The notes below the pieces were generated by a model, which was given only the letters and a program-made list of their open reading frames with translations, was not told where the DNA came from and ran no database searches. From a virus, in IMG/VR virus record IMGVR_UViG_3300042090_002597, positions 41,741 through 105,740 of that record: a stretch of DNA of 64,000 bases. The stretch is one strand, 5' to 3'. The position numbers and the translations under genes are program-made. Below are positions 6,258 through 9,730 of the stretch, one piece after another (positions within the stretch are counted from its first letter, which is position 1; the number at the start of each line of letters is the position of its first letter).

Positions 6258-6560
6258 ATGAATGACATCCAGACTATCGATCCAAGCCTTCCATGGAAAG
6301 TTCGCAAAGCATGGGCGAACGATGACGAGTGCGAGATTTATCCAACCTACAAGGGCAAGCGTCCTCAGTTCGGGCGATGGTCCGAAATAGCAGTTGTGAA
6401 AGGCAACAGCGCTAAAGAGGCGCGCAAGCGAGCACGATTGATGGCAGCAGCGCCTGATCTTTTGAACGCACTGAAAGGTGTCTTGCGCGTCGCTGATCGA
6501 CAGACGGTAGAATTTGACGCGGCACGCGCCGCAATCGCCAAAGCGGAGAGCAGCAAATGA
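6258..6560 (+). CDS. Hypothetical protein, 100 aa
   Basis: AAGGAAA upstream supports the ATG at 6258. Residues 10-60 hold WKVRKAWANDDECEIYPTYKG and a helix rich in Ala/Arg (NSAKEARKRARLMAAAPDLLNALKGVL). The second half resembles the conserved AAAPDLLxAL segment that I recall from many small phage proteins of unknown function. The stop overlaps the next start as ATGA. Confidence 0.7.
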   Translation: MNDIQTIDPSLPWKVRKAWANDDECEIYPTYKGKRPQFGRWSEIAVVKGNSAKEARKRARLMAAAPDLLNALKGVLRVADRQTVEFDAARAAIAKAESSK

Positions 6561-7369
6561 GCGACACTTCTACTCTCAATCCGATCTCCCGGCTCACCCG
6601 CGATCTCGCTTCGGCTGCGGCAACGCTGTCCGATGATGAGGCGCGCTTTCTAGTTTCCGCCTATTACATGATGCAGGAAGATCGGAAGCGCGCGTATAAT
6701 CAGGAAAGAGCCCTGGAGACCGCGGAGAAACCGCACGCCATTGTCTCGTGGCTGGCGGAGCAGTCCGAGACGCTGGAGAACCAGATCAAGCGAGCACTGG
6801 ACAAGTACACCGACTCGCATCCGATGGGTGCGTGGATGCGCGCGACGGTCGGCATCGGTCCGGTGATCTTCGCCGGTCTGCTAGCACACATAGATATATC
6901 CAAATGCCCCACGGTCGGGCATATCTGGTCCTTCGCCGGCATTGCCGGCACCGGGCAGAAGAAGTGGGTGAAGGGAGAGAAGCGGCCGTTCAACGCCAGT
7001 TTGAAGACGCTGTGCTGGAAGGCCGGTCAGAGTTTCATGAAGTTCTCAGGCAATGAGAATTGCTACTATGGCCAGGTCTACCGCAAGCGCAAGGAACTGG
7101 AGGTGGAGCGCAACGAAGCGGGCTTGTTCGCAGAGCAGGCCGCAGCTGGCACAGCAAGGGTGAGCAAGAGCACCGAGGCGTACAAGCACTACGCTGCTGG
7201 CAAGCTACCTCCTGGTCATATTGATGCGCGGGCGCGGAGGTATGCGGTTAAATTATTTCTTGCGCACATGCACGGACACTGGCATCAATTGCACTTCGGA
7301 ACACCGGCGCCGCTGCCGTATCCGGTGGCCCACATGGGCCATGTTCATGTTATTCCGCCACCGCATTAG
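6557..7369 (+). CDS. Phage protein related to the C-terminal (Tnp) domain of IS110-family transposases
   Basis: The 270-residue protein lacks the N-terminal RuvC-like DEDD domain of IS110 transposases. From about residue 93 it follows the pattern of their C-terminal domain. A helix-hairpin-helix reads VGIGPVIFAGLLAHI with a following FAGIAG. Next comes a basic stretch KRPFNASLKTLCWKAGQSF, then a long charged region (YRKRKELEVERNEAG) and a terminal helix DARARRYAVKLFLAHMHGHWH. Residues 1-90 are helical. Proteins of this kind are often annotated as transposase, but no mobile-element ends are seen, so it is probably a resident phage protein. It starts in ATGA overlap. Its stop lies 11 bases before the 18-bp repeat array, which may be functionally linked. 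Confidence 0.7.
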   Translation: MSDTSTLNPISRLTRDLASAAATLSDDEARFLVSAYYMMQEDRKRAYNQERALETAEKPHAIVSWLAEQSETLENQIKRALDKYTDSHPMGAWMRATVGIGPVIFAGLLAHIDISKCPTVGHIWSFAGIAGTGQKKWVKGEKRPFNASLKTLCWKAGQSFMKFSGNENCYYGQVYRKRKELEVERNEAGLFAEQAAAGTARVSKSTEAYKHYAAGKLPPGHIDARARRYAVKLFLAHMHGHWHQLHFGTPAPLPYPVAHMGHVHVIPPPH

Positions 7370-7380
7370 CCAAGCCACTT

Positions 7381-7938
7381 GAGAGAGTCATAAAGGTCGA
7401 GCGAGTCTTGTTGGCAGACAGTTCCATGCGGCTAGAGCGAGTCAGTTGAATAGAGAGCACCATTAGCGGCGAACGAGTCAGACTGCGCGACAGAACCACA
7501 AGCTACGAACGAGCCTAGAGTCACGAGAGGTCCATGCGACTAGAGCGAGTCATTCCTATCGACAGTGCCATGAGAAGTGAGCGAATCATGAGGCCTGAGA
7601 GCACCAGATTAGCTGAATGAACCAAACGTCTTGAGCGCACCAGACTGGCTGAATGAGTCATGGCTTCCGATAGCATCAAAGTGGTTGAACGAATCAAAAG
7701 GTGAGACAGCGCCAACCGTCCAGAATGAGTCACAATCAAAGATAGCATCATCCGGCTGGAGCGAATCAACACAAATGAGAGTACCATTTATCCGGAATGA
7801 GCCACCACGTCTGACAGAACCAAAGTTTCGTAGCGAGCCATATGCCACGAGAGAACCAATCCTGCAGTGCGAGCCATATGCCAGGAAAGAACCAAAGTAC
7901 GAGAACGAGCCAAATACCAAGAGAGAACCAAATGTCGT
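7381..7938. repeat. Array of 31 degenerate 18-bp repeats in exact register
   Basis: Thirty-one consecutive units start every 18 bases from 7381 to 7921 with no insertion or deletion. Each unit has a 10-base core and 8 variable bases. Nearly invariant core positions are G1, A2, G5, C9 and A10 (consensus GANNGNNYCA). Two core types mostly alternate, GARYGARTCA and GAYAGNACCA, giving a 36-bp super-period. Core type one contains GANTC sites. The array fills the gap between convergent genes (7370-7953). No single frame is open through it on either strand. A faded core may occur at 7939. Confidence 0.95.
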
Positions 7939-7953
7939 GAGTGCCGTCCGCGC

Positions 7954-8424
7954 CTAGGCTGCTTGCTTCGTCAGTTGCTGTCGATCGCGTCGGATAAACC
8001 CAACAGCATGGTGTTCGGGGCAATAGACCGAGCCATCCGCCCGGATAGCACCACAGAACCGGAACGCCGGAGTTCCGGGCTCGCCGATGGGCCAGCAGCA
8101 GGACACCCAGCCACTGCCCGTCGCATCCGCCGCAAGCAATCGCGACTCTGATGACAGCGGCATTTCCACCGGCGGCAACGACACAGCTGGTTCCGGATCA
8201 ATCGCCACATCAACCGCAAGCACTTCCGGCTTTAACCGCCGCGGCGGGATCGGTGACGGGCGCCCGGGCAGTTTCAGTTGTTTGCGCTTGCTGTTGATCG
8301 AGTTCTTTGACCGGTTCATCCGCCGGCCGATATCCAGTTCGGAAAGCACAGGCGAAGTCTGGTCCCACAGCATGCGCAGTAACTCGGCTTCGTCCTTGCT
8401 CCAGCGGTGTTCGTTGAAATTCAT
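7954..8424 (-). CDS. gcrA-like: GcrA-family cell-cycle regulator homologue
   Basis: The 156-residue protein has the two GcrA hallmarks. The N-terminal HTH, residues 6-50, reads WSKDEAELLRMLWDQ..LSELDIGRRMNRSKNSINSK and then LPGRPSPI, like the W-T-x-E-x-V-E-L-L / GRxSPI pattern. The C-terminal sigma-factor-binding part, about residues 108-145, has CCWPIGEPGTPAFRFCG and YCPEHH. In Caulobacter GcrA binds RNA polymerase sigma-70 region 2 and stimulates promoters with CcrM-methylated GANTC sites. A phage copy could redirect host transcription. It starts in ATGA overlap with the methyltransferase gene, and its 3' end faces the GANTC-containing repeat array. Confidence 0.85.
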   Translation of the reverse strand: MNFNEHRWSKDEAELLRMLWDQTSPVLSELDIGRRMNRSKNSINSKRKQLKLPGRPSPIPPRRLKPEVLAVDVAIDPEPAVSLPPVEMPLSSESRLLAADATGSGWVSCCWPIGEPGTPAFRFCGAIRADGSVYCPEHHAVGFIRRDRQQLTKQAA

Positions 8425-9566
8425 TTGGCCAGATGCCCCATCCAGGCTGTGATCACCGCAGCCGCGGCTTCCACATTGATAGCATTTCCGAAGGCGCGCA
8501 GTTTCTGTACGTCTCCCGGAACCCTTAATTTCAGCGGCGAGAGCATCATTTTTTCCTGGTTGCTCGGCCAGACCGCTTCGGTGCCAACATATCCCAGATC
8601 GGCGGATAGCCCTGGAGCCAACTCGAAAAGCGGGGATTCAGTAGGCCTTTGCCGCCCGTCGCTGCAGGCGATCCATTCAAGCTCGCGCCATGGGGGCCTT
8701 GGCCCGGCTTGTTGTTCAGCTGCTCGCCTTTCTTGCCACCACCGCGCTCCTCGTAGGTGCGATGTGTCGGAGTGCGGTAATCCCTCGCCGCTGGAGAGGC
8801 CCAGCCGCCCAGATATATCGCCAGCAGCGACTGCGAGTGCAGATTGTCCGGTATCTTCCCCGCCGCCAAGCGCGCCGCCGAGAAGCCGGTGCTCTGCGCG
8901 TCCTCCGCTTTCGGCGTCGACCAGCCCGCTGTCTGTGCCGCCACTTGCAAAGAGGTGATGGATGTGCGGTTGCTGAACGAGCCGTCCCGCTCGCCCATGC
9001 GTTTCTTCATCGCCAAGTGCGCCTCGACGGTCTTGTTGTCGTCCTGCGCCACCGGAGACGGCCAACCGGTCTGCGCACCACCAGATCCGATGCCGGATGT
9101 TCGGCGCACCGACGCCCGCAGAAGGAAAAACAATCGCCCCGCAGGCGTAGCCTGCATTTTCCAGGTCAGAGCATACAAGGTCGAGCCAGACGAGCCCGTC
9201 TCGGCTGCTAACCTGCTCCCCAATGAGTCGGTCAGGCTGGCACTGGTTGATGTGCCAGAAGACGGCGGGCCAAAGGTGCCGCTCGTCAGCAAACCCTTCT
9301 CTCTTGCCACTCTGGGAGAATGGCTGGCAAGGACAACTGACTGTCCAGACTGGTCTGTCATCGACCCACCCCGCTCGCCGGAGCGCCGCCGGCCATCCGC
9401 CTAGCCCCGCGCATAGATGCACCTGATCGTAACCCATGAGGTCCAGTGGCTCGACATCCCACAAATCACGGTCATCAATTCTCCCAGCCGGTATTTCCCC
9501 GGCGTCCATCAGATTGCTCAGCCAGTCGCAACAATAGCGTTCTATTTCGTTGTAGTAGGCTACCAT
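8421..9566 (-). CDS. C5-cytosine DNA methyltransferase (Dcm-type)
   Basis: Motifs appear in the canonical order: I (LCAGLGG, residues 51-57), IV with catalytic Cys80 (SCPCQPFSQSG), a variant VI (GEQV), VIII (IRHRIWW) and X (AFGNAINVEAAAAVI near the C-terminus). The 381-residue length fits the family. A long low-homology target recognition region lies between VIII and X. ATG at 9566 is chosen because it couples to the stop of the small gene at 9560-9730. The enzyme probably protects phage DNA from host restriction. A second frame nested inside it (8546-9361) also reads as a protein. Confidence 0.85.
   Translation of the reverse strand: MVAYYNEIERYCCDWLSNLMDAGEIPAGRIDDRDLWDVEPLDLMGYDQVHLCAGLGGWPAALRRAGWVDDRPVWTVSCPCQPFSQSGKREGFADERHLWPAVFWHINQCQPDRLIGEQVSSRDGLVWLDLVCSDLENAGYACGAIVFPSAGVGAPNIRHRIWWCADRLAVSGGAGRQQDRRGALGDEETHGRAGRLVQQPHIHHLFASGGTDSGLVDAESGGRAEHRLLGGALGGGEDTGQSALAVAAGDISGRLGLSSGEGLPHSDTSHLRGARWWQERRAAEQQAGPRPPWRELEWIACSDGRQRPTESPLFELAPGLSADLGYVGTEAVWPSNQEKMMLSPLKLRVPGDVQKLRAFGNAINVEAAAAVITAWMGHLAK
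8546..9361 (-). CDS. Nested reading frame inside the methyltransferase gene (WPSP/LNPxFSxWLxGYP protein)
   Basis: A 271-codon frame on the same strand, in a different phase, lies wholly inside the C5 methyltransferase gene. Its product does not look random. It has LTWKMQATPAGRLFFLLRASVRRTS, GWPSPVAQDD, GWSTPKAEDA and GWASPAARDY repeats, and an end LNPRFSSWLQGYPPIWD. I recall proteins with GWPTPxxxD repeats and LNPxFxxWLMGxPxxW ends as common hypothetical or methyltransferase-associated proteins of phages and bacteria. Both frames therefore seem to encode family-like proteins. Whether this one is translated cannot be decided here; its ATG at 9361 has only a GGGGTGGG-type upstream purine stretch. 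Confidence 0.55.
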   Translation of the reverse strand: MTDQSGQSVVLASHSPRVAREKGLLTSGTFGPPSSGTSTSASLTDSLGSRLAAETGSSGSTLYALTWKMQATPAGRLFFLLRASVRRTSGIGSGGAQTGWPSPVAQDDNKTVEAHLAMKKRMGERDGSFSNRTSITSLQVAAQTAGWSTPKAEDAQSTGFSAARLAAGKIPDNLHSQSLLAIYLGGWASPAARDYRTPTHRTYEERGGGKKGEQLNNKPGQGPHGASLNGSPAATGGKGLLNPRFSSWLQGYPPIWDMLAPKRSGRATRKK

Positions 9567-9730
9567 CCAAAAAACACTTTCGCCAACAGACCAGCACAGG
9601 CGGCCAGGCACAACCACGCCAGAATGCCGCCGATGACCCCGTTCCGAATTCCTCTGGGGGACAGCACATAGTCGCCTTCGTCATCGTACAGGTCGAACGG
9701 AGGCGGCGGGATGTCAAGTTCTCCTGGCAC
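9560..9730 (-). CDS. Small single-pass membrane protein, 56 aa
   Basis: A GTG start with AAGGAG at good distance opens a 56-codon frame on the minus strand. The product starts MPGELDIPPPPFDLYDDEGD and ends with one hydrophobic segment (GVIGGILAWLCLAACAGLLAKVFFGW). The stop TAG overlaps the methyltransferase start region (ATGGTAG). The N-terminus would be acidic and soluble, and the C-terminus anchored in the membrane. Role unknown. Confidence 0.7.
   Translation of the reverse strand: MPGELDIPPPPFDLYDDEGDYVLSPRGIRNGVIGGILAWLCLAACAGLLAKVFFGW

What the first reader, a model, noticed from the sequence alone, without database searches (positions are those of the whole stretch)
7381..7938. 31-unit 18-bp array kept in perfect register with two alternating core types
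Every unit from 7381 to 7921 begins exactly 18 bases after the last, over 558 bases without one indel, although 8 of 18 positions per unit vary freely. Core positions G1, A2, G5, C9, A10 are nearly invariant. Two core types alternate for most of the length, so the true period is about 36 bp. It is not coding. In the one frame open over the right half, third codon positions are the fixed ones (YCA) and the left 13 units contain five stops. It lies between two convergent gene 3' ends, so it is not a simple promoter region. It could be a multi-site binding platform (partition, packaging, replication) or an RNA scaffold.
Basis: partly seen in the sequence, partly recalled or inferred. Interest (0 to 1): 0.93.

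Follow-up and report, generated by a model that had tools for sequence, protein, structure and literature searches.

The report
TIGR guide-RNA array of phage TasA
The repeat array is a phage-encoded bank of 16 short guide RNAs for the RNA-guided DNA-binding protein TasA encoded immediately before it (a TIGR-Tas system, a kind described in 2025); comparison with over 100 relatives shows how such arrays change, and in one related lysogen points to a natural target, a competing integrated element.

Summary
In detail: 31 units in strict 18-bp register with alternating cores and a true period of 36 bp. The array is neither a DNA-binding platform nor a plain RNA scaffold. It is a TIGR (Tandem Interspaced Guide RNA) array. 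The gene ending 11 nt before unit 1 (6557-7369) encodes a 270-aa nuclease-less Tas protein, TasA. Its only solved relatives by sequence and fold are TasR, TasH and, more weakly, IS110-family transposases. Even units are edge repeats and odd units are loop repeats, separated by 8-nt spacers. Truncated edges at both ends give 16 tigRNAs of 36 nt. Of 116 related loci, 110 carry such arrays on the tas sense strand, with box C covarying between edge and loop (103 of 106). Two points go beyond the published work held in the library. Arrays change in whole 36-nt tigRNA steps anywhere along their length (188 of 193 length differences). In one related lysogen, one tigRNA matches exactly, and a second with two mismatches, a 9-kb integrase/capsid element elsewhere in the same chromosome. 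The window's own targets were not found.

The parts
6557..7369 (+). tasA: 270-aa Nop-domain Tas protein without a nuclease domain
   Evidence: PDB sequence hits TasR 9mty E=1.1e-12 and TasH 21kl E=1e-11; profile 3.2e-27 to TasR; AlphaFold2 model pLDDT 89.6, pTM 0.85; the 11 Foldseek hits with E<=0.001 are all chains of TasH/TasR complexes; no HNH or RuvC in Pfam
7368..7943 (+). TIGR array: 16 tigRNA units of 36 nt (edge - spacer A - loop - spacer B)
7368..7372 (+). 5'-truncated edge repeat (AGCCA), overlapping the tasA stop codon
   Evidence: truncated edges at array ends are typical (PMC12045711)
7381..7390 (+). first loop repeat; loops at odd units (7381, 7417, ... 7921), consensus GANAGNNYCA
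7399..7408 (+). first full edge repeat; edges at even units (7399, 7435, ... 7903), consensus GARYGARYCA
7373..7380 (+). first spacer A; 16 A spacers (8 nt) follow edge repeats and 16 B spacers follow loop repeats
   Evidence: list
7939..7943 (+). 3'-truncated edge repeat (GAGTG) ending the array; no intrinsic terminator found after it
7954..8424 (-). convergent GcrA-like regulator gene, flanking, not part of the system
   Evidence: Pfam PF07750 E=1.3e-13

Best explanation
This is a phage TIGR-TasA locus. tasA and the array are probably co-transcribed, and the transcript is cut within each edge repeat into 36-nt tigRNAs (edge half, spacer A, loop, spacer B, edge half). A TasA dimer would bind each tigRNA through its box-D-like 'GA' and box-C-like 'YCA' ends, one protomer on the edge and one on the loop repeat. 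The RNP would bind double-stranded DNA in which spacer A pairs with one strand and spacer B with the adjacent stretch of the other strand (target = A followed by the reverse complement of B). Having no nuclease, TasA would bend and block its target rather than cut it. The most likely use is to silence or block competing mobile elements in the same host. Shown here: protein family and fold, array anatomy, conservation, edge-loop covariation, 36-nt evolutionary unit. Inferred from characterised relatives: transcription, processing, DNA binding. Inferred with weak direct support: targets are competing integrated elements. The confidence given is for the TIGR-TasA identification and its guide-RNA mode of action; the rival-element role alone is about 0.45.
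For: Protein: sequence hits to TasR and TasH only, IS621 marginal; profile E=3.2e-27; fold search, the 11 hits with E<=0.001 are all TIGR-Tas complexes. Array: two alternating 10-nt repeats, 8-nt spacers, truncated edges at both ends, first full unit 12 nt past the tas stop as in most relatives. Family: 33 relatives in the first viral scan, 457 in the profile scan and 13 in bacterial and archaeal genomes; 110 of 116 loci examined carry arrays on the tas sense strand. The last base of box C agrees between edge and loop in 103 of 106 loci, including 7 G/G and 3 C/C. Unit: A-to-B adjacency is broken in 20 of 423 shared spacers and B-to-A in 227 of 467; length differences are even in 188 of 193, same direction in all 7 independent clusters. 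Target hint: KBS 96 lysogen. Mechanism of relatives: PMC12045711.
Against: No RNA or binding data for this locus. No promoter or intrinsic terminator was recognised around the array. The window's repeats are more degenerate than the family median (mean pairwise identity 0.76/0.76 against 0.85/0.81), so part of the array could be decaying. No target for the window's tigRNAs was found in its own genome or among relatives, and two scans of IMG/VR gave 15 and 16 scattered hits, judged chance level. The KBS 96 target is in a relative (58% protein identity), was found by trying six guides, and is small-number evidence.
Confidence: 0.95

Rival explanations
1. The array is a multi-site DNA-binding platform (partition, packaging or replication iterons) for a phage or host protein.
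For: Regular register, conserved cores, intergenic position between convergent genes.
Against: 18/36-bp spacing does not match whole helical turns; 8-nt spacers differ between close relatives while cores stay; the array always lies on one strand relative to tas and keeps edge/loop phase; changes come in 36-nt steps with A-B pairs kept together, which a simple binding platform does not require.
Confidence: 0.02
2. It is a decayed TIGR array that no longer makes working guides.
For: Edge and loop repeats are less uniform than in most relatives (0.76/0.76 against medians 0.85/0.81), chiefly at positions 3, 6, 7 and 8.
Against: tasA is intact; register is perfect over 576 nt; G5 and C9 are invariant, and substitutions between homologous units of relatives also avoid A2, G5 and C9 of both repeats; several relatives have equally loose or looser repeats.
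Confidence: 0.08
3. The locus is an IS110-family transposase remnant with unrelated repeats.
For: Weak Pfam hit to Transposase_20 (E=0.079, below cut-off), PHROG named 'transposase'.
Against: No DEDD catalytic domain; the TasR/TasH match is about ten orders of magnitude stronger than IS621; arrays accompany the gene in 110 of 116 relatives.
Confidence: 0.01

Closest known systems
TIGR-TasA systems (Faure et al. 2025, PMC12045711), dual-repeat type
   Same: Solo Nop-domain protein beside a dual-repeat array; two alternating 10-nt repeats; short spacers; truncated edges at ends; edge/loop box C covariation; phage-borne.
   Different: 8-nt spacers rather than the usual 9; 16 units, at the long end of the usual 5-15 (relatives reach 87 repeats); repeats unusually degenerate; box D reads GA rather than the UG of TasR arrays; no recognisable terminator.
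TasH of Salicola phage CGphi29 (21kl and related entries)
   Same: 16 nt of spacer per guide (two spacers of 8 nt), homologous Nop domain.
   Different: TasH has an N-terminal HNH nuclease; the window protein has none.
TasR (9mty)
   Same: Closest solved relative by sequence.
   Different: TasR has an N-terminal RuvC nuclease; absent here.
IS110/IS621 bridge-RNA transposases
   Same: Related RNA-binding domain.
   Different: No DEDD domain, no single bridge RNA, an array of guides instead.

Membership tests
TIGR-Tas (dual-repeat) | Adjacent Tas protein with Nop domain | tested here: met
TIGR-Tas (dual-repeat) | Two distinct alternating 8-12-nt repeats, edge and loop | tested here: met
   Positions 4-6: YGA in 15/15 even units, AG in 15/16 odd units
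TIGR-Tas (dual-repeat) | Two short spacers per unit (usually 9 nt, 8 in SpTIGR) | tested here: met
   8-nt spacers, each column at most 0.24 bit
TIGR-Tas (dual-repeat) | Truncated edge repeats at both array ends | tested here: met
   7368-7372 and 7939-7943
TIGR-Tas (dual-repeat) | Box C/D motifs covary between edge and loop across loci | tested here: met
   Last base of box C agrees in 103 of 106 loci
TIGR-Tas (dual-repeat) | Array followed by a rho-independent terminator (typical) | tested here: not met
   None found after 7943; described as typical, not as a requirement
TIGR-Tas (dual-repeat) | Processing into 36-nt tigRNAs bound by Tas | not testable with these tools
   Indirect: relatives differ in whole 36-nt units, 188 of 193
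TIGR-Tas (dual-repeat) | Tandem-spacer DNA targeting (A plus rc(B)) | tested here: inconclusive
   No target for the window; in KBS 96 one exact and one 2-mismatch site in one element
TasA subtype | No nuclease domain in the Tas protein | tested here: met
   270 aa; no HNH/RuvC hit; alignment to TasR begins at TasR residue 117
IS110 transposase | N-terminal DEDD catalytic domain | tested here: not met
   No N-terminal domain; Pfam E=0.079, below cut-off, covering only residues 98-161

The most novel reading that the evidence does not exclude
TIGR-TasA is a weapon between mobile elements. Each phage carries a shuffling deck of whole 36-nt dual guides that is edited internally, not at a leader end, and that directs a nuclease-less protein to block control or replication genes of rival integrated elements. 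The Acidobacteriaceae KBS 96 lysogen gives a first natural target: tigRNA 2 matches exactly, with no gap and in the published orientation, the start of an excisionase-like gene of a 9-kb integrase/capsid element, and tigRNA 5 matches a second site about 0.9 kb away with two mismatches.
Probability: 0.45. Interest if true: 0.88.

Novelty: new member of a known kind. Interest (0 to 1): 0.55.

Why it matters
TIGR-Tas was described in 2025, and its authors left open what the guides target, what nuclease-less TasA does and how arrays grow (PMC12045711). This locus belongs to a branch that is common in phage contigs (457 loci in one scan), with many close relatives whose arrays differ. That makes array turnover readable from sequence: whole tigRNA units are gained and lost along the entire array. 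It also makes target hunting in lysogens practical, and one such hunt gave a plausible target in a rival element.

Tried and rejected
Coding repeat: rejected, stops in all six frames. DNA-binding iterons or centromere: rejected, see rivals. IS110 remnant: rejected. Self-targeting: no A+rc(B) match with at most 1 mismatch for 455 guides in their own records. Targeting of related phages: over 1583 distinct guides and 2.9 Mb, counts did not differ from rotated pairings, other orientations or other gaps; an earlier slight excess (60 against about 45) did not hold. IMG/VR scans with the two guides at 7831 and 7867: 15 and 16 scattered hits, no similarity to the window and few homologous sites. Two Halomonas NO4 guides against that genome: none. 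End-biased spacer acquisition as in CRISPR: not seen, conservation is roughly flat from both ends. Plasmids: no relative of TasA in PLSDB. A first version of the array finder ran chains on past the array ends and was replaced.

Full report
What is in the sequence. Between 7381 and 7938 there are 31 units of exactly 18 bases. Information per column is 0.68 bit at period 18 and 0.76 at period 36, against at most 0.13 in 2000 shuffles, and no other part of the window approaches it. G5 and C9 are invariant, G1, A2 and A10 nearly so, and positions 11-18 are close to random. Even units read GARYGARYCA and odd units GANAGNNYCA. All six frames contain stops. The array really begins with a truncated even-type repeat, AGCCA at 7368-7372, which overlaps the stop codon of the upstream gene, and ends with a truncated even-type repeat, GAGTG at 7939-7943. 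That gives 16 units of 36 nt.

The protein next to it. The gene 6557-7369 runs into the array. By sequence its only clear solved relatives are TasR (9mty, E=1.1e-12) and TasH (21kl, E=1e-11), with IS621 marginal at 0.033; a family profile raises TasR to 3.2e-27. The AlphaFold2 model is confident (pLDDT 89.6), and all 11 Foldseek hits in the PDB with E<=0.001 are TasH or TasR complexes. It has no HNH or RuvC domain. It is therefore a TasA, and the array is a TIGR array as defined by Faure et al. [quoted passage not shown]

Family. 33 close relatives were found in IMG/VR, 457 with a profile, and 13 in bacterial and archaeal genomes; four INPHARED phage records match more distantly, including Salicola phage CGphi29, the source of TasH. 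Of 116 loci examined, 110 have such arrays, always on the tas sense strand, most often starting 12-13 nt after the tas stop when downstream (window 12). The last base of box C agrees between edge and loop in 103 of 106 loci, changing together to G/G in 7 and C/C in 3. This matches the published expectation of a symmetric protein dimer holding both repeats.

How arrays change. Related phages share some spacers and differ in others. When a spacer is shared, its partner within the same tigRNA is shared or slightly mutated in 403 of 423 cases, while the next tigRNA is different in 227 of 467. All seven independent clusters show this direction. Length differences between matched blocks are multiples of 36 nt in 188 of 193 cases. 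Gains and losses occur throughout the array, and no end is favoured. Exact duplicate spacers within arrays are far above expectation (18 against 0.2), so duplication of units plays a part. Homologous units also accumulate point changes, and these spare A2, G5 and C9 of the repeats. The repeat unit defined biochemically is thus also the unit of evolution. The held papers do not report this (the discovery paper calls array expansion an enigma), but the library is not complete. The comparison pools related pairs, so counts are not independent events.

Targets. No guide of the 34 records examined, the window's included, matches its own record at one mismatch or less, and 1583 guides show no excess in 2.9 Mb of related phage DNA. 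One test had more power: the array in the Acidobacteriaceae KBS 96 prophage was searched against its 6.7-Mb genome. Of six guides, one has an exact, gapless match in the published orientation (the other five); about 0.06 such matches are expected for all six with gaps 0-2. The site lies in the first codons of an HTH_17 (excisionase-like) gene beside a phage integrase, in an element of about 9 kb with capsid and prohead protease genes. A second guide has a gapless match with two mismatches, both at the 5' edge of spacer A, about 0.9 kb away. Only 2 of 1577 guides from other loci reach two mismatches without a gap in this element. The 40 kb around the prophage itself has no match with two or fewer mismatches. 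Two Halomonas NO4 guides gave nothing. I take this as a good lead, not proof. The orientation A + rc(B) was derived by me from the published cut positions and 8-nt 3' overhangs.

Mechanism. By homology, the transcript is processed in the edge repeats, a TasA dimer holds each 36-nt tigRNA, and the complex opens 16 bp of DNA with A and B on opposite strands. Without a nuclease the effect must come from binding and bending; blocking expression or excision of rival elements fits the one target found. Steps shown here are family membership, anatomy and the evolutionary unit; processing and binding are inferred from relatives; the biological role is inferred with limited evidence.

Verdict. The feature is a new member of a known, recently described kind, in a large tailed phage (primase, DNA polymerase, baseplate and tape-measure genes).

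Noticed in passing
L260:1501-1516 (KB906767.1, 6,329,962-6,329,977); guides in L040:5780-6000: Exact gapless tandem-spacer target of a TIGR-TasA guide in a 9-kb integrase/capsid element of the same chromosome, with a second 2-mismatch site at 6,329,052.
   Followed up: yes
window 7831-7884, and B spacers at 7427-7434 and 7535-7542: Near-duplicate spacers (TATGCCAC/TATGCCAG; TGCGGCTA/TGCGACTA), suggesting unit duplication followed by drift.
   Followed up: partly
L025, L029, L044, L046, L048, L050: Tas relatives in which no dual-repeat array was detected within the fetched flanks; some may carry stem-loop arrays or be cut by contig ends.
   Followed up: no
window 7363-7800 versus 7813-7938: Repeats in the 5' part of the array look more degenerate than those at the 3' end.
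   Followed up: no
L115 and L148: Two phages whose tas genes are only about 60% identical share eight spacers, hinting at horizontal exchange of array units.
   Followed up: no
window 7954-9617: GcrA-like regulator followed by a C5 cytosine methyltransferase, converging on the array; GcrA suggests an alphaproteobacterial host (from general knowledge).
   Followed up: no
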